A stretch of 64,000 nucleotides of DNA from a virus. The translations under genes were made by a program, and so were the position numbers. Position 1 is the stretch's first letter. Each line of letters starts with the position of its first letter. The notes under the pieces are model-generated. The model saw nothing but the letters and a program-made list of their open reading frames with translations. It was not told the DNA's origin and did not search any database. The stretch is taken from positions 62,001-126,000 of the IMG/VR virus record IMGVR_UViG_3300047157_000162; one strand, 5' to 3'. This document shows positions 1-64,000 of this stretch, one piece after another.

Positions 1-118
1 CTGTGATACCTGCATTTTCTAATATTGTAAAGTAAGGGGCTTTTATAGCTTTTAATAAAACTTCTTCACCTAATCCTTCACTTTTAATATATGTTGAAGC
101 ATTTAATAATGCAACGCC
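1..118. repeat. Terminal direct repeat, left copy (circular junction)
   Basis: These 118 bases recur at 63883-64000 with one difference: T here at 51, C at 63933. The difference changes one groEL codon from Lys to Arg. The simplest reading is a circular or permuted genome whose assembly overlaps itself, giving a unit of about 63,882 bp. The repeat may continue past the window end, so its true length is unknown. Confidence 0.9.
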
Positions 119-1874: not shown

Positions 1875-2762
1875 TTATTTATTGAAAACTGTTGCACTGT
1901 TAAACATTTCAGACATATTAATCACATTACTCACATCCCAATTTCCTATAGCCGCATTGAAAGAGACTGCACTTTTAAACATACTGCTCATATAAACAAC
2001 GCTGCTAACATCCCATCCGGTAATATCGTTATTAAAAGAAGTGGAGTTCATAAACATTGATGACATATTAGTCACACTACTCACATCCCAGGAATCAATA
2101 TCTTGGTTAAAAGCTGATGTTCCACTATTAGGTAATCTAAACATACTACCCATATCTGTTACGCTACTCACGTCCCAGTCACTTAGCGGCTGATTAAAAG
2201 AGGTTGCACCATAAAACATTGATCTCATATATGTCACATTACTCACATCCCAGCTTTCAATATCTTGATTGAAAGAGGTTGCAACATAAAACATAAGACC
2301 AGTATTCCAAGCGTTACCTAAATCCCAAGAACCAATATTTTGATTGAAAGCAGACGCTCCCTTAAACATACCTTGAAACACCGTGCCGTTACCTGTATTC
2401 CAAGAACTAATATCAGCATTAAAAGTATTTTTATTTTCAAAGGCATAGCTAAAATCTGTTACTCTACTCACATCCCAATTTGGCATAGTGCCGAAAGGTG
2501 TTACGTTGTAAAGACCCGTAACAGGCTCTTGAGCTAAGCAAGTAGCTATAATTGAATTAAAATTAGCATCTGTTATATATAAAGTTCCTCCAGCATCATA
2601 GTTTCTAAATTGAAGTAAATTACTTTCATCACCTGGCCCGTAGTTAGAATCAAACTTGCCTAATATAGCGTCATCAAATGAATCAACTAAATCATCTGTT
2701 GTTGGATTGACAGTCGAGACAACATCTTGCAATGAAAAAGTAGTTGTATTTGGTACTGCCAT
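1875..2762 (-). CDS. BspA-like DUF285 repeat tail/adhesin protein
   Basis: The protein has 295 residues. The first 60 or so ([11 protein letters not shown]...) look like a phage anchoring head. From about residue 95 onward there are seven to eight repeats of about 24-27 residues of the type W-D-V-S-x-V-T-x-M-x-x-M-F-x-x-A-x-x-F-N. This is the BspA/DUF285 leucine-rich-like repeat of bacterial surface proteins. Repeats of this family mediate surface and protein binding in Bacteroidota and mollicutes. Its place directly after the S74 tail fibre, with start and stop codons touching at 2762, suggests a receptor-binding or fibre-tip accessory. There is no signal peptide, consistent with a virion protein. 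The repeat call is strong; the adhesin role is inferred. Confidence 0.85.
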
Positions 2763-16651: not shown

Positions 16652-16725
16652 GGCGCGGTGGAGAAGTTGGTTATCTCGCGAGTCTCATAAACTCGAGGTC
16701 GAAGGTTCGAATCCTTCCTGCGCAC
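16652..16725 (+). tRNA. tRNA-Met (anticodon CAT)
   Basis: A cloverleaf can be drawn: acceptor GGCGCGG with CTGCGCA (1-72 is a G-A mismatch), D stem GAGA/TCTC, anticodon stem CGAGT/ACTCG with loop CTCATAA, T stem GAAGG/CCTTC with loop TTCGAAT. CCA is not encoded. The anticodon stem lacks the GGG/CCC of initiators, so an elongator Met, or Ile2 if modified to lysidine, is more likely. It is the only tRNA found. Confidence 0.9.
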
Positions 16726-16745
16726 CTAATTTAAAATTAAATAAA

Positions 16746-19354: not shown

Positions 19355-19639
19355 ATGACAGAGAAAGATATTACTAAAATAGCCGAGCTAACTGCTAAAA
19401 TTATTATAGATCATTTAGAAGCAAAGCAAGACGAATGGAATCAAGACTTCCAAGTATCAATGGAGAATATTAAACAAGACGGCTTTGGTAATATGCGTAT
19501 GATGTCTGAGCAAGAAATAATACACATGCAGATAGACGAACTACAGCAAGAGTTAGACAAAGCAGTTGAGGATGAAAACTTCACATTAGCTAGTAAAATA
19601 AATAATAAAATTATTAACCTAAATAAAAAATTAAAGTAA
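19355..19639 (+). CDS. Small UVR-motif protein (94 aa)
   Basis: The C-terminal 35 residues (IDELQQELDKAVEDENFTLA and then KINNKIINLNKKLK) follow the UvrB/UvrC (UVR) motif, a helical hairpin that mediates protein-protein contacts. The N-terminal 55 residues are helical and unassigned. Its stop overlaps the ATG of the pyrimidine-dimer glycosylase-like gene. Together they hint at a repair-related pair. Confidence 0.6.
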   Translation: MTEKDITKIAELTAKIIIDHLEAKQDEWNQDFQVSMENIKQDGFGNMRMMSEQEIIHMQIDELQQELDKAVEDENFTLASKINNKIINLNKKLK

Positions 19640-20133
19640 TGAATATATTTTATCTATCTCACGATCCTGTGCAAGCAGCTAAGTATCAATACAATAAACA
19701 CGTTGTAAAAATGATACTTGAAACCGCACAACTATTATGTACAGCTCATCACGAGTTAGGTACTAATATTGATATACCATATAAAGCTACGCATAAAAAC
19801 CATCCGTCAGCTATATGGGTTAGATCCTCTGCCGAAGCATATATGTGGGCATACGAACATATGTTAGCTCTTGGTAAAGAATATACAAAACGTTACGGTA
19901 AAGAACATCTTACAATCGCTAAATGCCGCGATGTGCTATACACTTTGCCTAACGGTATATCTGATAAAGCTTTCGAGCAGCCACCGCAATGTATGCCTGA
20001 CGAATATAAAGTCAACGGCAATAGCGTACTTGGCTACTGGAATTATTATGAAAACGAAAAACACACAGTAAAAAACAAAAATGAGCAGAAAATTATACGT
20101 CCACACAACATCAACGAATTATGCGAACATTAA
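19639..20133 (+). CDS. Phage pyrimidine dimer DNA glycosylase-like protein
   Basis: The protein has 164 residues. Its sequence (NIFYLSHDPVQAAKYQYNKH, VVKMILETAQLLCTAHH, YKATHKNHPSAIW, YTKRYGKEHLT) follows a widespread phage family usually annotated as pyrimidine dimer DNA glycosylase. T4 DenV is the best known enzyme of that activity. The activity of this family is mostly inferred, so a repair role should be treated as likely only. It overlaps both neighbours. The adjacent UVR-motif protein supports the repair context. Confidence 0.65.
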   Translation: MNIFYLSHDPVQAAKYQYNKHVVKMILETAQLLCTAHHELGTNIDIPYKATHKNHPSAIWVRSSAEAYMWAYEHMLALGKEYTKRYGKEHLTIAKCRDVLYTLPNGISDKAFEQPPQCMPDEYKVNGNSVLGYWNYYENEKHTVKNKNEQKIIRPHNINELCEH

Positions 20134-23772: not shown

Positions 23773-25488
23773 ATGCAAATAGAGACTACAGAGATCAATG
23801 GATTTGCGATTGACACGTTCAATCAGCATGGTCTAGAGCAAGGGAAGAAGCAGGGTGTATGCCCTGTTTGTTCTCATACTAGAAAACCTGCGAATAAGAA
23901 AGCGAAGTGTGCTTCTTATGACTGGGAACGGGGTCTCGGTACTTGTCACAATTGTAATACATCATTTCAACTTCATACTTACAAGCGTAAGGGTAAAGCT
24001 GAAAAAGTGTATATTAAACCTGAACCTATTGTTGTTGAGCAACCAAGCACTAAGGTTGAAGAATGGTTTAAAACAAGAGGTATTTCACAACAGACTCTCA
24101 TTGATTTAAAAATTAGTGAGGGTCCTGAGTGGATGCCACAGACCGGTAAAACCGAGAATGTAATAAAGTTCAATTATTTTATGGGCGGCGAATTAACTAA
24201 TGTTAAATACCGTGATGGAAGAAAGAACTTTAAATTATATAAGGGTGCTGAGAAAGTATTTTATAATATAGATAGTATTGTAGGATATGAATATTGTGTT
24301 ATAGTAGAGGGTGAAATGGATGTGTTAGCATTGCATGAAGCAGGTATTACAAACGCTATATCAGTTCCCAATGGAGCAACACTTAACTCCAATAACTTAG
24401 ACTACTTAGATAGTTGTATTGATTACTTTGAAGATAAAGAAAAGATTATATTAGCTGTAGACTCTGACGAAGCTGGACAAGCATTACAAACAGAGTTAAT
24501 TAGAAGGCTAGGATCTGAAGTTTGTTTTCTATCAACATTTGAAGATTGTAAAGATGCAAATGAATACCTACAAAAATATGGAGCAGACAAACTCACAGCT
24601 AGAATTACAGGAGCAAAACCAGTACCGCTTGAAAATGTTACTACTTTCAGAGACATCGAAGATGAGATTACTGACTTTGTTAGGAATGGTTTCAAAAAAG
24701 GATTTCAAGTTGGTCTTCCAAACTTTGATGATATCTTTTCAACTTATACCGGTCAATTTATTACTGTCACTGGTATTCCTTCTTCCGGTAAAAGTGATTT
24801 TGTCGACCAAATGGTTGTCGGTTATAATGCAAACTATGGCTGGAAAACAGCTTTCGCTTCGCCTGAGAATGTACCTACCTATCTGCACGCTCACAAATTA
24901 ATGCGTAAGACTTGGCAAGGTATGCCAACAAGAGATGATATCGGCGGCGATAAGTGGAATCAAATAGCTGATCACTGTAATAGTAATTACTTTCATATAG
25001 ATATGGAACGCTACACATTAGAGTCTGTTTTAAAGAAAGCGGCTGAACTTGTTAAGCGTAAAGGTATTAAATGCTTAGTAATAGATCCTTTTAATAAGGT
25101 TAGAGATGTAGATTGTAAGACGGAAGATGTTAATAGATACACTATGGAATACTTAAGCAAGATAGAAATCTTTGCTAAAAAGTTTGATGTACTTGTATTT
25201 ATTGTAGCTCATCCTACTAAAATGTATAAAGACAAAGACGGCAAGATTGAAGAGCCTACTATGTATAACATTAAAGGAGGTGGTGAATGGTACGATGCTT
25301 CTTATCACGGGCTATTAGTTCATAGAGATTATGAAGCTAAGACTGTTAAGTGTAAAGTTCTTAAGGTTAAGTTTCAAAACTTAGGAGAGAATGGTGCTGA
25401 AGCACATTTTAAATGGGAACCAAAGTCAGGTTGCTTTATACCTCACGAGCCATTAGATATAGGTGGTGAAAAAATGCCCTGGGAATAA
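23773..25488 (+). CDS. Primase-helicase (T7 gp4/Twinkle type)
   Basis: The protein has 571 residues. Zinc ribbon: Cys30, Cys33, Cys58, Cys61. Toprim domain: VIVEGEMDVLAL (about 175-186) and AVDSDEAGQ (about 227-235). Helicase domain: Walker A GIPSSGKS (about 334-341), Walker B LVIDPFNKV (about 434-442) and AHPTKM. The fusion unwinds DNA and primes synthesis. Because no DNA polymerase is encoded here, it probably loads the host polymerase. It is preceded by the SSB-like and zinc-finger genes in the same operon. Confidence 0.9.
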   Translation: MQIETTEINGFAIDTFNQHGLEQGKKQGVCPVCSHTRKPANKKAKCASYDWERGLGTCHNCNTSFQLHTYKRKGKAEKVYIKPEPIVVEQPSTKVEEWFKTRGISQQTLIDLKISEGPEWMPQTGKTENVIKFNYFMGGELTNVKYRDGRKNFKLYKGAEKVFYNIDSIVGYEYCVIVEGEMDVLALHEAGITNAISVPNGATLNSNNLDYLDSCIDYFEDKEKIILAVDSDEAGQALQTELIRRLGSEVCFLSTFEDCKDANEYLQKYGADKLTARITGAKPVPLENVTTFRDIEDEITDFVRNGFKKGFQVGLPNFDDIFSTYTGQFITVTGIPSSGKSDFVDQMVVGYNANYGWKTAFASPENVPTYLHAHKLMRKTWQGMPTRDDIGGDKWNQIADHCNSNYFHIDMERYTLESVLKKAAELVKRKGIKCLVIDPFNKVRDVDCKTEDVNRYTMEYLSKIEIFAKKFDVLVFIVAHPTKMYKDKDGKIEEPTMYNIKGGGEWYDASYHGLLVHRDYEAKTVKCKVLKVKFQNLGENGAEAHFKWEPKSGCFIPHEPLDIGGEKMPWE

Positions 25489-25743
25489 ATGGGTAGTGGT
25501 AATAAAAAGAAAGCAGTTAATATGGGTAGCCCACCTCATAAAGAGGAACAGTGGGAAGCATATAGATGGTGCGTTAGAAATAATATATGTATATCAGCAA
25601 AAGCTAAAAACAATTCTGAATGGTATATAGATATAGTTAACAACGGTAACACCCATACAAGCCCTGAGACTTATGGTAAAAACGATATATGGACAAAAAT
25701 ATTTGAATACTCAAAATATTATTATGATAAACATAGAAAATGA
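25489..25743 (+). CDS. Hypothetical protein (84 aa)
   Basis: It begins MGSGNKKKAVNMGSPPHKEE. Basic start, then helical and aromatic (WEAYRWCVRNNICIS) with a beta hairpin. It starts immediately after the primase-helicase stop and overlaps the start of thyA by 20 bases. Such small proteins are common between primase and thyA in Bacteroidota phages. Function unknown. Confidence 0.65.
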   Translation: MGSGNKKKAVNMGSPPHKEEQWEAYRWCVRNNICISAKAKNNSEWYIDIVNNGNTHTSPETYGKNDIWTKIFEYSKYYYDKHRK

Positions 25744-25951
25744 ATACAAAGGATTATTATCAGAAATACTCGACAAAGGAGTGGATAAATCAGATCGAAC
25801 AGGGACTGGGACGAAGTCTGTCTTCGGAAGAACGATTAGACACGATATGTCACTGGGCTTCCCTATACTCACAGGAAAGAAGATAAGTTTTAATGCAGCA
25901 AAAACGGAATTGCTTTGGATATTAAAGGTAGAACTGATCTTAAGTATTTAG
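25724..25951 (+). CDS. thyA: Thymidylate synthase, N-terminal fragment (frameshift near 25925)
   Basis: The start MINIENEYKGLLSEILDKGV at 25724 overlaps the previous gene. DRTGTGTKSVFGRTIRHDMS is the folate/dUMP-binding start of ThyA. The frame reads to LLWILK and then hits VELILSI-stop. The other frame gives GRTDLKYLEDNG, the expected continuation. The AAAGG at 25923-25927 should be AAAAGG; one A is missing. Joined with the downstream fragment the protein is about 277 residues, close to the family's 264. It makes dTMP from dUMP. Confidence 0.85.
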   Translation: MINIENEYKGLLSEILDKGVDKSDRTGTGTKSVFGRTIRHDMSLGFPILTGKKISFNAAKTELLWILKVELILSI

Positions 25952-26556
25952 AAGATAACGGTGTTAAATACTGGAGACCGGATTATGAACGCTCAGGTAG
26001 AACAGATGAAACATTAGGTCCTGTATATGGAAAACAGTGGCGTGATTTTAACGGCGTAGATCAACTAAAAAATCTTGTGTATAGCATTATAACAAACCCT
26101 GACTCAAGACGTCTTATGGTTAGCGCATGGGCTCCACATGAGATGAATGATATGGTACTTCCTCCGTGTCATTATGCTTTTCAAGTTTATATTAACGACG
26201 GTGTTATGGATTTAATGTGGCAACAAAGATCCGCTGATGTGTTTTTAGGTTTACCTTACGATATTACAATGTATGGTTTATTATTGGAAATGTTAGCTAA
26301 AGGTGCTGGTTTAAAAGCCGGTCAACTTATTGGTCAACTCGGTGATTGTCATTTATACAATAACCATTTAGAGCAAGCAAGGGAGTATAGAAGAAGATCT
26401 AAGCGCAAGCTTCCTGAATTAGATCTTAACTCTGGTATAAAATTAATTGAGTTTAATGACTCCTCTGAGTTATTTATACCAAATAAAGACAATATAAATC
26501 TAAAAAACTACAATCCTTATCCTGCAATCAAGGCAGAGCTGAGTGTTGGTAAATAA
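25915..26556 (+). CDS. thyA: Thymidylate synthase, C-terminal fragment
   Basis: Real coding in this frame begins at about 25926 (GRTDLKYLED). It carries the catalytic block LPPCHYAFQVYINDGVMDLM with the nucleophile Cys, RSADVFLGLPYDITMYG, and GDCHLYNNHLEQ, all as in bacterial ThyA. The ORF's apparent start (TTG at 25915) is an artefact of the frameshift. A T4 td-like intron is excluded because the gene resumes after one base. Supplies thymidine for replication together with the reductase and MazG proteins. Confidence 0.85.
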   Translation: MDIKGRTDLKYLEDNGVKYWRPDYERSGRTDETLGPVYGKQWRDFNGVDQLKNLVYSIITNPDSRRLMVSAWAPHEMNDMVLPPCHYAFQVYINDGVMDLMWQQRSADVFLGLPYDITMYGLLLEMLAKGAGLKAGQLIGQLGDCHLYNNHLEQAREYRRRSKRKLPELDLNSGIKLIEFNDSSELFIPNKDNINLKNYNPYPAIKAELSVGK

Positions 26557-26563
26557 AAACAAT

Positions 26564-27361
26564 ATGACATATTATTTATACCATATTCCAGGTAAAAAAA
26601 TAGGAATAACACGTAATCTTAAAGATAGAGTTACGCGGCAACAAGGTTATACCGCAGACGAATACGAAGTTCTACTTACTAGCGATGATATAGATTATAT
26701 ATCTGACAAGGAAATAGAACTTCAAAAGTCTTATGGGTATAAAGTCGACAGACAAAAATATAATTTTTTAACTAAAAAATCAAATCGAATGAAATTAAAC
26801 CCTACAGACCAAACAACTACATTTCCAGTGCCTGTTTATAAATTAAGAGGTAACTTAATGGATAATATAGGCTTAAAGTGGGAGACACCTCAAGGTTATA
26901 AATTTGAAATAACTAAAGAAAATATAAATTGGATATTATTAAATGTTAAAACCTCTATGTATAACAACAATAGATGCTACATATATAATAAAGCTTTTAA
27001 TAGATATCTTAATGAATCTACAGATACAACAAATTCTACATATCCAGAAAAGTTATATTCTTATCAAGATCAATTTGAATTAATAAGAGAATGGGCTAGT
27101 GATAAAGGTATATATAGATCAGGCGATTCTAAAACTCAGTATATCAAACTAATGGAAGAAGCAGGAGAATTAGCTCAAGCTATATTAAAAAACGATGAAC
27201 CTGAAGTGATCGATGCTATTGGTGATATGGTTGTAGTATTAACTAATTTAGCTAAACTAAGAGGGCACAATATAGAAGACTGTATTAGCAGTGCTTACAA
27301 CGTTATAGCTAAACGGAAAGGCGAAATGATAAACGGAACATTTGTAAAACAAACCCTATGA
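26564..27361 (+). CDS. GIY-YIG-like / MazG pyrophosphohydrolase fusion
   Basis: The start MTYYLYHIPGKKIGITRNLK at 26564 is preferred to 26543. Residues 1-65 resemble a GIY-YIG nuclease core (YLYH, KIGITRNLKDR, and a later Glu in EIELQKSYG). Residues about 195-265 form a MazG NTP pyrophosphohydrolase: YIKLMEEAGELAQAI and EVIDAIGDMVVVLTNLA, with EExxE and ExxD metal motifs. Phage MazG proteins remodel nucleotide pools or ppGpp. A nuclease-hydrolase fusion is unusual; about 100 residues between the domains are unassigned. Confidence 0.75.
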   Translation: MTYYLYHIPGKKIGITRNLKDRVTRQQGYTADEYEVLLTSDDIDYISDKEIELQKSYGYKVDRQKYNFLTKKSNRMKLNPTDQTTTFPVPVYKLRGNLMDNIGLKWETPQGYKFEITKENINWILLNVKTSMYNNNRCYIYNKAFNRYLNESTDTTNSTYPEKLYSYQDQFELIREWASDKGIYRSGDSKTQYIKLMEEAGELAQAILKNDEPEVIDAIGDMVVVLTNLAKLRGHNIEDCISSAYNVIAKRKGEMINGTFVKQTL

Positions 27362-27483: not shown

Positions 27484-27747
27484 ATGAATAAGCAAGAAAT
27501 AGAATTTAGAGATCCAGTTGTTCAAAGAGTTGTACAAAAATTTGTATCAAGATCAGACATAGGCTTTGCTAAGTACGGTGTAACATTAGAACAAGATCCG
27601 TCTAAAATGTTTGAATGGTTAAATCATTTACAAGAAGAGCTTATGGATGCTGTGTTGTATTTACAAAAAGCTAAAGAAGTTTATACTACTAATCTTCAAG
27701 AAGACTTGCTAAGTGATTTAGATGTAGATTATGAAAAAATTATTTAA
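27484..27747 (+). CDS. MazG-like NTP pyrophosphohydrolase-family protein (87 aa)
   Basis: The sequence SDIGFAKYGVTLEQDPSKMF and EWLNHLQEELMDAVLYLQKA matches the small all-alpha NTP-PPase family found in many phages (YG-T-L, WL-x-HLQEEL-x-DA). Metal-binding acids are the EEL and D of EELMDA. It probably hydrolyses modified or unwanted dNTPs. It overlaps the endonuclease I-like gene by 17 bases. With the fusion upstream this makes two MazG-type proteins. Confidence 0.7.
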   Translation: MNKQEIEFRDPVVQRVVQKFVSRSDIGFAKYGVTLEQDPSKMFEWLNHLQEELMDAVLYLQKAKEVYTTNLQEDLLSDLDVDYEKII

Positions 27748-28189
27748 AAGAAAAAGCGGAAAGCGTGGACCAGTAAGAGCAAAGAAGGTGTCATATGATG
27801 GTATCAACTTTGCTTCGGGTCTTGAGAAATATATGTACATAGCTTTAAGAAAAGCAAAGATAAAAGCTAAGTACGAAGGAGAGACATTTGTTTTATTAAA
27901 TGGTTTTCATTTTGAAAATGAAGTTTATGAGAGACAAGCTAATGGTAAAGGTGATTATAAAAATAGAGGGTGCAAACGTATTTTACCTATTAAGTATACA
28001 CCTGATTTTATTGGCGAAGATTTTATAATTGAAACTAAAGGTAGAGCAAATGAATCATTTCCTATGAGATGGAAGTTGTTTAAGCAGCTTATAGTAAGGC
28101 AATTCCCAAATGTAACATTATACAAACCACAAAATCAAAAAGAATGCGACAAGACCGTAGAGTTAATCCTTTCGAAGCAAAGAGGATAG
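27731..28189 (+). CDS. Endonuclease I-like Holliday junction resolvase
   Basis: The protein has 152 residues. Active-site pattern of the T7 endonuclease I/PD-(D/E)XK group: SGLEKYMYIALRKAKI (Glu), then IKYTPDF, and FIIETKGR with D...E-x-K. It cuts branched DNA, resolving replication and recombination joints before packaging. A basic N-terminus (KKLFKRKSGKRGPVRAKK) suits DNA binding. It overlaps its neighbours and lies in the replication/nucleotide cluster. Assignment is by motif spacing. Confidence 0.75.
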   Translation: MKKLFKRKSGKRGPVRAKKVSYDGINFASGLEKYMYIALRKAKIKAKYEGETFVLLNGFHFENEVYERQANGKGDYKNRGCKRILPIKYTPDFIGEDFIIETKGRANESFPMRWKLFKQLIVRQFPNVTLYKPQNQKECDKTVELILSKQRG

Positions 28190-28463: not shown

Positions 28464-28630
28464 TGGATGATAATTTAGAAAGCGTAGTGGCTGCAGTAGG
28501 CTTATTTATAGACAACGTATTGCATGATATGAAGAATGTATCTAAGTCTACAACAAAGCCTGTTATATTGGCTCATATAGATGCCTGGAAGAACGAATTA
28601 GAAACAATAAAACAATTTACAAAAACATAA
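28463..28630 (+). CDS. Small hypothetical protein (55 aa)
   Basis: A GTG start overlaps the previous TAG. The sequence (MDDNLESVVAAVGLFIDNVL and on to KNELETIKQFTKT) is helical. Its TAA overlaps the nrdB ATG (TAATG), so it is translated just before the reductase. No family recognised. Confidence 0.5.
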   Translation: MDDNLESVVAAVGLFIDNVLHDMKNVSKSTTKPVILAHIDAWKNELETIKQFTKT

Positions 28631-29535
28631 TGGGATTATTTGATAAAAGAATACCTTATAAGCCTTTTGAGTACCCTGAGTATTATACTGAGGGTTGGTT
28701 AAAACAAGCTCAAGCTTTTTGGTTGCATACAGAAATATCAATGCAAAGCGATGTTAAAGACTGGAAAGAAAAATTAAATGAAAAAGAAAAAAACTTAGTA
28801 GGTAATATACTATTAGGTTTTGCTCAAACCGAATGTGCAGTATCTGATTACTGGACGCAAAAAGTAGTTGGTTGGTTTCCTAAGCATGAGATACAACAAA
28901 TGGCAATGATGTTTGGATCGCAAGAAACTATACATGCAGTTGCTTATAGCTACTTAAATGAAACTTTAAAACTAGAAGATTATGAAGCGTTTTTACACGA
29001 GCCTGCTACAGCAGAAAGATTTGATAATCTTGTATCTTATAGTGGGACTAATTCAATTGGTATTGCTAAGTCTCTCGCTGTATTTTCTGCATTTGCCGAA
29101 GGAGTTTCTTTATATTCTGCCTTTGCAGTACTTTATTCTTTTCAGCTTAGAAATTTGCTTAAAGGTATTGGGCAACAAATGAAGTGGTCAGTAAGAGATG
29201 AATCATTGCACAGTAAAATGGGTTGTACTTTATTTCGTCATATGTGCGAAGAAGACAATCAATTACTGAGCTTATGTCGAGAAGATATAATAAAAGCTGC
29301 AGAAACAATGGTTAATCTTGAAGTTAAATATATTGACAAAATGTTTGAAATGGGTGATATAGAAGGTATATCATCTAATGATCTAAAACACTTTATAAAG
29401 AAAAGAACAAATGAAAAACTTGTGGAACTCGGTTACGTTGACCTTGGAAACTATTTCGCGTATGACGACAAAGCAGCGTCTAATCTTGATTGGTTTTACC
29501 ATCTTACCGGGGGCGTCACTCATACTCGCTATTAG
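28630..29535 (+). CDS. nrdB: Class I ribonucleotide reductase, beta subunit
   Basis: The protein has 301 residues. Metal ligands by alignment to E. coli R2: Glu68 (at the Asp84 position, TEC), Glu99, His102, Glu157, Glu191 (RDESLH), His194. The radical Tyr is Tyr106 (HAVAY, +4 from His102), so a Tyr-radical di-iron or di-metal enzyme is expected. An electron-transfer Trp is at Trp31. It is shorter than E. coli (376). Translationally coupled to the gene before it. Pairs with NrdA at 29795. Confidence 0.9.
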   Translation: MGLFDKRIPYKPFEYPEYYTEGWLKQAQAFWLHTEISMQSDVKDWKEKLNEKEKNLVGNILLGFAQTECAVSDYWTQKVVGWFPKHEIQQMAMMFGSQETIHAVAYSYLNETLKLEDYEAFLHEPATAERFDNLVSYSGTNSIGIAKSLAVFSAFAEGVSLYSAFAVLYSFQLRNLLKGIGQQMKWSVRDESLHSKMGCTLFRHMCEEDNQLLSLCREDIIKAAETMVNLEVKYIDKMFEMGDIEGISSNDLKHFIKKRTNEKLVELGYVDLGNYFAYDDKAASNLDWFYHLTGGVTHTRY

Positions 29536-29594
29536 GCCGACTGATTATTCAAAAGCGGGAGAAAATGAAGATATATGTGGTAATAATCTAATAA

Positions 29595-29798
29595 GCCAAA
29601 GAAATTTTAGAACTGAACGGACAGATTATTAGGCAAAAGGCTGCTTGGAAACGTTTAGCAACTAGAATAGGAATATGGGAGGATCGCTGCTATGACTATA
29701 GACATGTAGTAGTAATACGAGCTCTAAAAACAATGGAATCTAGTAGCTTTAAACAAATGGGCTATTGCCTGGATAATACACTCAATAACATAATGTGA
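29595..29798 (+). CDS. Possible small gene between nrdB and nrdA, no clear start
   Basis: After a TAA, one frame reads AKEILELNGQIIRQKAAWKR and continues (YDYRHVVVIRALKTMESSSF) to a TGA that overlaps the nrdA GTG. It looks like real helical protein but has no ATG/GTG/TTG at its head. A short ATG ORF (29564, MKIYVVII) stops just before it, so a further indel may join them. Low confidence. Confidence 0.35.
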   Translation, partial: AKEILELNGQIIRQKAAWKRLATRIGIWEDRCYDYRHVVVIRALKTMESSSFKQMGYCLDNTLNNIM

Positions 29799-31507
29799 AT
29801 AATTGGAAAAAAGGAGAAGATTACCCTGCGTGGGGTAATAACGACGTATACAAGAAGACAATATCCGGGGGATATTTATACGACGGAGAAACGCCTAGAG
29901 AGGCATACCAAAGAGTCGCTAAAACAGTTGCTCGTAGGTTATATAAACCAGAGATGGCTGAAACGTTTTTTAATTATATCTGGAATGGTTGGCTTTGCCT
30001 TGCTTCTCCAGTGCTTTCCAATACTGGTACAGATCGTGGTCTTCCTATTAGTTGCTTTGGTATCGATGTTGCTGACTCTATACAAGACATAGGAAGTAAA
30101 AATTTAGAGATGATGCTACTCGCTAAGCACGGCGGTGGAGTTGGTATCGGTGTAAATCAAATTAGACCCGCTGGCGCTAGAATAACAGGTAATGGAACAT
30201 CAGATGGAGTCGTACCTTTCTGCAAGATATATGACTCAACAATTCTTGCAACTAATCAAGGGAGTGTCCGTCGTGGAGCTGCCTCAGTTAATATCAACAT
30301 TGAACATGGCGACTTCGAGGACTGGCTTGAAATCAGGGAACCTAAAGGAGATGTTAACAGACAATCGCTTAACCTTCATCAGTGCGCAATTGTTGGTGAT
30401 AAGTTTATGCGAAAGCTTGAACAAGGAGATAAAGAAGCAAGATCTAGATGGGGTAAATTACTTAGAAAACGAAAAGGAACTGGAGAACCGTATATTATGT
30501 TTAAAGGAAATGTTAACAAAGCAAATCCAGAAGCATATAAAGAAAACGGATTAAAAGTACATATGACTAACATATGTTCAGAAATTACATTACACACAGA
30601 TGAAAACCATAGTTTTGTATGTTGTTTATCATCATTAAACTTAGCAAAATATGAAGAATGGAAAGACACTAATCTTATATATGACGCCACTTTCTTTCTT
30701 GATGGAGTTATGGAGGAATTTATTCAAAGAGCCAAGGGACTTCGCGGGTTTGAAAATGCTGTTCGGTCTGCGCAGAAAGGGAGAGCATTGGGACTTGGTG
30801 TACTCGGATGGCACACCTATCTCCAAGAAAATGGTATTCCTTTCGAAGGTTTACTATCTCAGTTTGAAACTAGGAAAATATTTTCGCAAATTAAAATTGA
30901 AAGTGAAAGAGCCTCAAGAGACTTGGCAGAAATTTACGGCGAGCCTTTATGGTGTGTTGGGACAGGTATGCGTAATACTCATCTCCGTGCTATTGCTCCT
31001 ACTGTTTCTAATAGCAAGCTTAGCGGTAATGTTTCTCCTGGTGTTGAGCCGTGGGCTGCGAATGTTTTTACAGAGCAGAGTGCAAAGGGGACTTTCATTA
31101 GGAAAAACCCGACGTTAGTTAAACTATTAAAGAAACATAAACTAAATACAAATGAAACGTGGAATAAAATACTGGCTGACGGAGGTAGCATACAGGATAT
31201 CGATGCTTTGGATAATATCACTATGGGCCATGACATTCCAGTTAAAGAAGTTTTTAAAACTTTTAAAGAGATTAATCAACTAGAATTAGTTAATCAAGCT
31301 GGTCTTAGACAACAATATGTAGATCAGTCAGTTAGTTTAAACTTAGCTTTTCCTTCTGAAGCTACACCTAAGTGGTTGAACAAAGTTCATTTTGAAGCTT
31401 GGAAGAAAGGTGTTAAAACCTTATATTATACTAGAACAGAATCTGTTTTACGTGGTGATATAGCTCAGCAAGCTATGAATGAAGATTGTTTAGCTTGTGA
31501 TGGCTAA
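29795..31507 (+). CDS. nrdA: Class I ribonucleotide reductase, alpha subunit
   Basis: GTG start at 29795. The protein has 570 residues. Catalytic features: Cys87 (LPISCFG) and Cys276 as the reducing pair, NICSE with Asn259, Cys261 (thiyl) and Glu263, the radical-relay pair Tyr544-Tyr545 (TLYYTRTES), and C-terminal CLACDG (565-570) for redox partners. It lacks the N-terminal ATP cone found in the 761-residue E. coli enzyme, so dATP feedback is likely absent. Converts NDPs to dNDPs with NrdB. Last gene of the rightward unit. Confidence 0.95.
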   Translation: MNNWKKGEDYPAWGNNDVYKKTISGGYLYDGETPREAYQRVAKTVARRLYKPEMAETFFNYIWNGWLCLASPVLSNTGTDRGLPISCFGIDVADSIQDIGSKNLEMMLLAKHGGGVGIGVNQIRPAGARITGNGTSDGVVPFCKIYDSTILATNQGSVRRGAASVNINIEHGDFEDWLEIREPKGDVNRQSLNLHQCAIVGDKFMRKLEQGDKEARSRWGKLLRKRKGTGEPYIMFKGNVNKANPEAYKENGLKVHMTNICSEITLHTDENHSFVCCLSSLNLAKYEEWKDTNLIYDATFFLDGVMEEFIQRAKGLRGFENAVRSAQKGRALGLGVLGWHTYLQENGIPFEGLLSQFETRKIFSQIKIESERASRDLAEIYGEPLWCVGTGMRNTHLRAIAPTVSNSKLSGNVSPGVEPWAANVFTEQSAKGTFIRKNPTLVKLLKKHKLNTNETWNKILADGGSIQDIDALDNITMGHDIPVKEVFKTFKEINQLELVNQAGLRQQYVDQSVSLNLAFPSEATPKWLNKVHFEAWKKGVKTLYYTRTESVLRGDIAQQAMNEDCLACDG

Positions 31508-63705: not shown

Positions 63706-64000
63706 TTGCTCTTAAATTATTAATTACACAATCAGTTGATAATATTGTAGTAGCTACAGACGCAGCATTTCTTAATGCACTTTTGGTTACCATTAACGGA
63801 TCAATTATACCGTGTTTAACCATATCTACAGGTTCTCCTGTTATTGCATTCAAACCAACACCTTTGTCTTGCGGTTCTGATGCTGTGATACCTGCATTTT
63901 CTAATATTGTAAAGTAAGGGGCTTTTATAGCTCTTAATAAAACTTCTTCACCTAATCCTTCACTTTTAATATATGTTGAAGCATTTAATAATGCAACGCC
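63689..64000 (-). CDS. groEL: Chaperonin GroEL, C-terminal part (continues from base 1)
   Basis: Continuation of the gene starting at 1360. The frame reads GITASEPQDKGVGLNAITGE, GIIDPLMVTKSALRNAASVA and ends CVINNLRANEGDR at 63689. The Asp of GIIDP corresponds to E. coli Asp495. The C-terminus lacks the GGM tail. The right terminal repeat (63883-64000) lies inside this part, and the one mismatch with the left copy changes Lys to Arg. Confidence 0.95.
   Translation of the reverse strand, partial: GVALLNASTYIKSEGLGEEVLLRAIKAPYFTILENAGITASEPQDKGVGLNAITGEPVDMVKHGIIDPLMVTKSALRNAASVATTILSTDCVINNLRANEGDR
63883..64000. repeat. Terminal direct repeat, right copy
   Basis: Second copy of bases 1-118, differing at 63933 (C versus T at 51). 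The window ends inside or at the end of the repeat, so its full length cannot be judged. Confidence 0.9.

What the first reader, a model, noticed from the sequence alone, without database searches (positions are those of the whole stretch)
26564..27361. GIY-YIG-like domain fused to MazG
A nuclease-like N-terminal domain with a MazG NTP-pyrophosphohydrolase at the C-terminus, next to ThyA and a second MazG-like protein. The combination suggests coupling of DNA cutting and nucleotide-pool control, or a degenerate GIY-YIG used for binding.
Basis: partly seen in the sequence, partly recalled or inferred. Interest (0 to 1): 0.6.

Follow-up and report, generated by a model that had tools for sequence, protein, structure and literature searches.

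The report
Phage nuclease–MazG fusion for cytosine exclusion
A marine bacterial virus makes one protein that joins a DNA-cutting domain to a nucleotide-destroying domain, always encoded next to an enzyme predicted to modify cytosine building blocks; it probably helps the virus remove ordinary cytosine and keep its own modified DNA distinct from the host's.

Summary
The fusion is real. Window 26564-27361 encodes 265 aa: a GIY-YIG-superfamily domain of the T5orf172/MUG113 type (res 1-75), an unassigned middle domain (76-152), and a MazG pyrophosphohydrolase (168-263). It is not an assembly error: 272 single-ORF copies (200 distinct proteins) occur in viral contigs, all domains under purifying selection, with Tyr6, Arg22 and Glu50 invariant. 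The neighbour is not an ordinary ThyA. It, and a second TS-family gene that replaces it in most relatives (including the sister genome in the same record), carry Asp at the Asn177 position that sets dUMP versus dCMP specificity (270 of 270 readable copies). In unrelated phages, D177 genes have a MazG of this subfamily within 1 kb in 30/45 dereplicated loci, against 3/59 for N177 ThyA (p = 8e-12). Best reading: a cytosine-exclusion protein, with MazG as dCTPase (like T4 gp56) feeding dCMP to the adjacent (hydroxy)methylase and the nuclease cutting unmodified DNA (like T4 EndoII/denA). The MazG–modifier link is well supported by genomics. Nuclease activity and target are inferred; nothing was assayed. 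The 'second MazG-like' gene is not supported. New variant of a known kind.

The parts
26564..27361 (+). GIY-YIG(T5orf172)-middle domain-MazG fusion gene, 265 aa
   Evidence: open frame; 200 distinct relatives; AlphaFold model mean pLDDT 89.4
26564..26788 (+). residues 1-75: GIY-YIG-superfamily domain of T5orf172/MUG113 type; Y6, K12, G14, R22, E50 invariant
   Evidence: relatives pass Pfam cut-offs; predicted-fold matches to viral GIY-YIG proteins; conservation
26789..27019 (+). residues 76-152: middle alpha/beta domain without a known family; conserved TxTF and YNKA motifs
   Evidence: no Pfam or PHROGs hit; pLDDT above 90; no credible PDB match
27065..27352 (+). residues 168-263: MazG domain, acidic residues E198, E199, E202, D217, D221, with two C-terminal strands as in S-2L MazZ
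   Evidence: Pfam MazG 28.7 bits; Foldseek 1VMG, DCTPP1, S-2L MazZ; invariance
25724..26556 (+). TS-family gene with Asp at the E. coli ThyA Asn177 position, predicted dCMP (hydroxy)methylase; frame change near 25925-25950 in this record, intact in L001-L003
   Evidence: alignment to solved ThyA; 67/67 readable long TS have Asp; frameshift
   Evidence: PHROGs unknown-function hits; no MazG support
27731..28189 (+). DUF1064 / Holliday-junction-resolvase-like nuclease, constant neighbour
   Evidence: Pfam DUF1064 35.6 bits; PHROG 190; conserved order
23773..25488 (+). TOPRIM primase / DnaB-like helicase, constant upstream neighbour
   Evidence: Pfam; conserved order
28630..31507 (+). ribonucleotide reductase genes NrdB and NrdA, constant downstream neighbours
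   Evidence: NrdA by Pfam; NrdB named by reading the sequence; conserved order

Best explanation
The gene encodes a two-activity 'cytosine-exclusion' protein of a phage that modifies cytosine. (1) The adjacent TS-family enzyme, with Asp at position 177, converts dCMP to 5-methyl- or 5-hydroxymethyl-dCMP (inferred from sequence). (2) The MazG domain hydrolyses dCTP to dCMP and pyrophosphate, which feeds that enzyme and keeps plain dCTP out of replication, the role of T4 gp56 (inferred from a strong gene association). (3) The T5orf172-type GIY-YIG domain cuts unmodified, cytosine-containing DNA (host or competing phage DNA) while the phage's own modified DNA is spared, the role of T4 endonuclease II/denA, and the cut DNA supplies nucleotides (inferred from catalytic residues and the T4 parallel). 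The middle domain probably binds DNA or positions the nuclease (guess). Shown here: the fusion, its conservation, its fixed position beside a D177 TS gene, and the wider association of this MazG subfamily with D177 TS genes.
For: Fusion conserved as a single ORF in 272 copies (200 distinct; Y6, R22, E50 and the MazG acidic residues 100%) with similar purifying selection in each domain (median dN/dS 0.21, 0.26, 0.22). Directly upstream TS gene has Asp177 in 270/270 readable cases, 203 of a short and 67 of a long type. The two TS types swap at least 18 times on the fusion's tree (shuffled mean 51), both always with Asp. The short type's best PDB relatives include MilA CMP hydroxymethylase and T4 dCMP hydroxymethylase. 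The long type is ThyA-like with N177 replaced by D, whereas two related phage ThyAs keep N. Asn177-to-Asp switches ThyA from dUMP to dCMP, and Asp177 marks cytosine-modified metagenomic contigs, where PRA-PH (MazG-fold) domains co-occur with TS (PMC8670742). In unrelated phages a same-subfamily MazG lies within 1 kb of D177 TS in 30/45 dereplicated loci versus 3/59 for N177 TS, Fisher p = 8e-12. Pairs outside the flavophage context: L342, L353, L450-L452. Nuclease: T5orf172 above cut-off in relatives; Odn, a T5orf172 nuclease, needs its Glu (E180A dead) and cuts in vitro (PMC8263062). T4 precedent for all three roles (PMC8056088, PMC1564403). A MazG-like enzyme feeding a base-modifying enzyme is proven for S-2L MazZ (PMC8342488).
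Against: No activity was measured for any of the proteins. Cytosine modification of this phage's DNA is not shown. MazG enzymes vary in substrate and dCTP specificity is not readable from the sequence; cultured flavophages without an annotated TS in the stretches examined also carry MazG-like genes. The canonical second Tyr of GIY-YIG is Lys here (as in Odn), the usual His/Tyr in the first helix is absent, and a counterpart of the canonical Asn was not identified. No significant PDB fold match for the nuclease domain. No glucosyltransferase, dCMP deaminase or dNMP kinase was recognised among the window proteins scanned.
Confidence: 0.55

Rival explanations
1. Only the MazG half works on the cytosine pathway (dCTPase); the GIY-YIG domain is a non-cutting DNA- or partner-binding module that places the enzyme at the replication fork or the modifying enzyme.
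For: Window copy scores weakly against GIY-YIG models; the second Tyr is Lys; many relatives have the MazG alone beside the TS.
Against: Tyr6, Arg22 and Glu50, the positions tied to catalysis, never vary in 200 proteins; Odn shares Lys for Tyr and still cuts.
Confidence: 0.2
2. The GIY-YIG domain is a homing-type endonuclease that captured MazG, acting mainly for its own spread or against competing phages at a specific site.
For: T5orf172 domains occur in putative homing endonucleases, and Odn is a domesticated anti-parasite nuclease (PMC8263062). TS genes are classic homing targets (general knowledge).
Against: Not patchy: all 68 loci found through the DUF1064 neighbour, with room upstream, hold the GIY domain at the same place (67 as one ORF, 1 split). 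All GIY domains found in the scans belonged to the fusion, apart from truncated or frame-split copies.
Confidence: 0.1
3. General nucleotide-pool housekeeping: MazG degrades several (d)NTPs or damaged nucleotides, and the neighbourhood reflects a generic nucleotide-metabolism cluster (TS, NrdA, NrdB).
For: Fixed synteny with NrdA/NrdB; MazG-like genes in related cultured flavophages where no TS is annotated nearby; broad substrates known for some MazG (PMC10014863, abstract).
Against: This MazG subfamily follows D177 TS, not N177 TS (30/45 vs 3/59), including in contexts without detected NrdA/NrdB.
Confidence: 0.15

Closest known systems
Phage T4 cytosine-exclusion set: gp42 dCMP hydroxymethylase, gp56 dCTPase, EndoII (denA, GIY-YIG)
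   Same: Same three roles proposed: dCMP modifier, dCTP removal, GIY-YIG cutter of C-containing DNA
   Different: In T4 these are separate genes; EndoII is a different GIY-YIG branch (general knowledge, not tested here); here nuclease and pyrophosphatase are one polypeptide with an extra middle domain
S-2L MazZ (MazG-HisE fold) of the PurZ/DatZ/MazZ cluster
   Same: MazG-type pyrophosphatase with two C-terminal strands beside a nucleotide-modifying enzyme; MazZ-1 is also reported with N-terminal fusions
   Different: MazZ is (d)GTP-specific and serves adenine replacement; the passages read do not describe its fusions as T5orf172
Odn (ICP1 gp88), T5orf172 nuclease
   Same: T5orf172 domain with K-V-G in place of Y-I-G, catalytic Arg and Glu, phage-encoded
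   Different: Fused to a RepA_N-like DNA-binding domain, targets a parasite origin; no MazG
Phage MazG-like proteins annotated 'DNA binding protein' (PHROG 1994, 14652)
   Same: MazG domain of the same kind at the C-terminus
   Different: No relative of this N-terminal domain found in cultured phages

Membership tests
MazG / all-alpha NTP pyrophosphohydrolase | Profile match above curated cut-off | tested here: met
   PF03819 28.7 bits, cut-off 22
MazG / all-alpha NTP pyrophosphohydrolase | Fold and metal-binding acidic residues | tested here: met
   Foldseek probability 1.00 to 1VMG, MazZ, DCTPP1 (E values 0.01-0.1); E198, E199, E202, D217, D221 invariant
MazG / all-alpha NTP pyrophosphohydrolase | Pyrophosphohydrolase activity and substrate | not testable with these tools
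   needs enzyme assay
GIY-YIG superfamily, T5orf172/MUG113 branch | Profile match above curated cut-off | tested here: met
   met by relatives L044 and L166 and supported in 19/41 members; the window copy alone is below cut-off
GIY-YIG superfamily, T5orf172/MUG113 branch | Tyr of first motif, Arg of helix 1, Glu of helix 2 | tested here: met
   Y6, R22, E50 100% in 200 proteins, positions consistent with the predicted secondary structure
GIY-YIG superfamily, classical | Second Tyr (Y-I-G) and helix-1 His/Tyr | tested here: not met
   Lys12 and no His/Tyr in helix 1; Odn also lacks both and is active
GIY-YIG superfamily, T5orf172/MUG113 branch | Significant fold match to a solved GIY-YIG structure | tested here: inconclusive
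   1zg2 only at E 1.3; predicted viral GIY-YIG proteins at probability about 1.0, E about 0.013
dCMP (hydroxy)methylase (neighbour gene) | TS fold family with Asp at position 177 | tested here: met
   Pfam TS; Asp in 270/270; alignment
dCMP (hydroxy)methylase (neighbour gene) | dCMP turnover to 5-methyl- or 5-hydroxymethyl-dCMP | not testable with these tools
   needs assay
Homing endonuclease | Patchy presence at a site among close relatives | tested here: not met
   present in 68/68 loci with room upstream, one of them split

The most novel reading that the evidence does not exclude
A single phage polypeptide carries out both destructive halves of cytosine exclusion, cutting cytosine-containing DNA and hydrolysing dCTP, physically coupling host-genome breakdown to dNTP-pool purging beside a dCMP-modifying enzyme. 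In one common marine phage group the gene is fixed, implying widespread modified-cytosine flavophage-like viruses.
Probability: 0.4. Interest if true: 0.75.

Novelty: new variant of a known kind. Interest (0 to 1): 0.62.

Why it matters
It predicts that a large group of uncultured marine phages replaces or heavily modifies cytosine, and it gives a one-gene assayable model for how such phages separate 'self' modified DNA from host DNA. It also suggests that a MazG subfamily widely annotated as housekeeping or 'DNA binding protein' is a dCTPase marker for cytosine modification, and that TS genes annotated thyA in viral genomes should be checked at position 177.

Tried and rejected
Assembly-error fusion: rejected. 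Homing endonuclease with patchy presence: not met. ppGpp or general stress MazG reading: not favoured given the D177 association. Second MazG gene at 27484: Pfam, phage families and profile comparison gave no support. PDB fold search of the N-terminal half: no credible hit; sequence profile against PDB: none. N-terminal domain in cultured phages: no match; in 84,980 species genomes only two contigs, both with the same flanking phage genes. Known defence families (PADLOC): none. Literature: no paper found describing a GIY-YIG-MazG fusion (MazG not mentioned in the superfamily survey). Profile match of the family to Odn itself was weak (1.6-2.8 bits), so the Glu equivalence to Odn E180 rests on reading the two sequences side by side, not on a significant alignment.

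Full report
What is there. Window 26564-27361 (+) is one open reading frame of 265 codons that starts a few bases after the upstream TS-family gene ends. It has three parts. Residues 168-263 are a MazG pyrophosphohydrolase (Pfam 28.7 bits against a cut-off of 22) with the MazG/HisE fold (1VMG, human DCTPP1, cyanophage S-2L MazZ; E values 0.01-0.1, probability 1.0). Residues 1-75 are a small beta-beta-alpha-beta-alpha domain. On its own the window copy is only suggestive of the GIY-YIG superfamily (T5orf172 and MUG113 below cut-off), but relatives pass the curated cut-offs (L044, L166) and 19 of 41 members match T5orf172. Residues 76-152 form a confident but unassigned alpha/beta domain. A comparison with predicted viral structures finds one full-length relative (E 1e-27, 48% identity) and GIY-YIG proteins of uncultured phages (E about 0.013, probability about 1.0).

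It is real and conserved. Scans of viral contigs gave 272 single-ORF copies, 200 distinct. Residues Y6, K12, G14, R22, E50, Q54, Y59, D62 and Y66 of the nuclease-like domain, and E198, E199, E202, D217 and D221 of MazG, do not vary. The three domains are under similar purifying selection (median dN/dS 0.21, 0.26, 0.22). Because those loci were chosen for holding the gene, I also collected loci through the neighbouring DUF1064 gene: all 68 with room upstream hold the fusion and a TS gene (in one the frame is split). This excludes an assembly artefact and argues against a patchy homing element. The gene order primase-helicase, TS, fusion, small protein, DUF1064 nuclease, NrdB, NrdA is constant in this group. 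The closest cultured primase-helicases include those of Cellulophaga, Tenacibaculum and Flavobacterium phages.

The neighbour is not an ordinary thymidylate synthase. In the window the TS gene is split by a frame change that close relatives lack. Aligned to solved ThyA enzymes it has Asp where they have Asn, the position that sets dUMP versus dCMP specificity (reviewed and tested in PMC8670742; PMC6400193; PMC5175136). Two related phage ThyAs keep Asn. In most relatives, and in the sister genome within the same record, a different, shorter TS-family gene sits at the same place; its PDB relatives include MilA CMP hydroxymethylase and T4 dCMP hydroxymethylase, and its closest cultured-phage relatives are annotated deoxycytidylate 5-hydroxymethyltransferase. 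Of 273 upstream TS genes, 270 could be read at the position and all have Asp; two copies of one contig read differently because of a local deletion and one is truncated. On the tree of the fusion the TS type changes at least 18 times (shuffled labels: mean 51), so the two enzyme types have replaced each other repeatedly while Asp was kept. The tree was a fast one, and recombination near the border could inflate the count.

MazG goes with cytosine modifiers beyond this group. Taking viral TS genes related to a Bacteroides phage dCMP hydroxymethylase and, as a control, to a canonical phage ThyA, a MazG gene of this subfamily lies within 1 kb in 30 of 45 dereplicated Asp177 loci and 3 of 59 Asn177 loci (odds ratio 37, Fisher p = 8e-12). 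Limits: the MazG search profile came from this group plus five phage seeds, the two sets differ in phage taxonomy, and a few Asp177 loci carry the fusion. Three Asp177 ThyA-like loci (L450-L452) and two short-TS loci (L342, L353) carry the full fusion without the other usual neighbours being detected. Most of the others carry MazG without the nuclease domain, so the nuclease part looks like an addition to an older TS-MazG pair (inference).

How it most likely works. Published T4 biology gives the template: gp42 makes hydroxymethyl-dCMP, gp56 removes dCTP and makes dCMP, and the GIY-YIG endonuclease II cuts unmodified DNA (PMC8056088; PMC1564403). Here the second and third roles would sit in one polypeptide beside the first. 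A MazG-type enzyme feeding a base-modifying enzyme is proven for S-2L MazZ (PMC8342488), whose two extra C-terminal strands the present model also shows. That a T5orf172 domain with Lys in the second motif and no helix-1 His/Tyr can cut DNA is proven for Odn, where changing its Glu abolishes cleavage (PMC8263062; Odn sequence). My alignment profile matched Odn only weakly, so the equivalence of E50 to Odn's catalytic Glu is by reading, not by a significant alignment.

What is shown and what is not. Shown: fusion, conservation, Asp177 neighbour, MazG-Asp177 association. Inferred: dCMP as TS substrate, dCTP as MazG substrate, DNA cutting, sparing of modified DNA. Guessed: role of the middle domain. 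I give 0.55 to the overall reading, more to the MazG half than to the nuclease half. Cultured flavophages with a MazG-like gene and no annotated TS in the stretches I read are a reminder that MazG proteins also have other uses.

Novelty. I found no description of a GIY-YIG-MazG fusion in the paper library. The parts are known; the combination and its context are new: a new variant of the cytosine-exclusion machinery.

Noticed in passing
G000:C1 (129,537 bases), window 1-118 and 63883-64000: The virus record appears to join two related genomes of about 62-64 kb (many stretches 75-97% identical); the window spans about one unit and begins and ends with the same 118-base repeat (99%).
   Followed up: partly
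window 25724-26556: TS-family gene split by a frame change that close relatives L001-L003 lack; sequencing error or a true mutation cannot be told apart.
   Followed up: partly
window 28630-29632: NrdB ends at 301 aa and its usual C-terminus continues in another frame (sister copy is 322 aa), a second frame change in this record.
   Followed up: no
window 25724-26556 versus L086:5469-6110: Two different dCMP-type TS genes occupy the same slot in the two genomes of one record; the swap recurs across the group.
   Followed up: yes
window 1875-2762 (-): Very strong match (E 5e-105) to DUF285, a repeat family described from Mycoplasma, next to a protein with a Peptidase_S74 chaperone domain; possibly a host-recognition protein.
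   Followed up: no
window 19639-20133 (+): Sub-threshold match to pyrimidine dimer DNA glycosylase (T4 DenV type), 19.2 bits against a cut-off of 23.
   Followed up: no
window 16652-16726 (+): Single tRNA-Met gene (anticodon cat) in the early region.
   Followed up: no
L083 and L084: Phage contigs carrying this module are binned into MAGs labelled Aliivibrio and Verrucomicrobiales; likely binning or contamination, so host labels are unreliable.
   Followed up: partly
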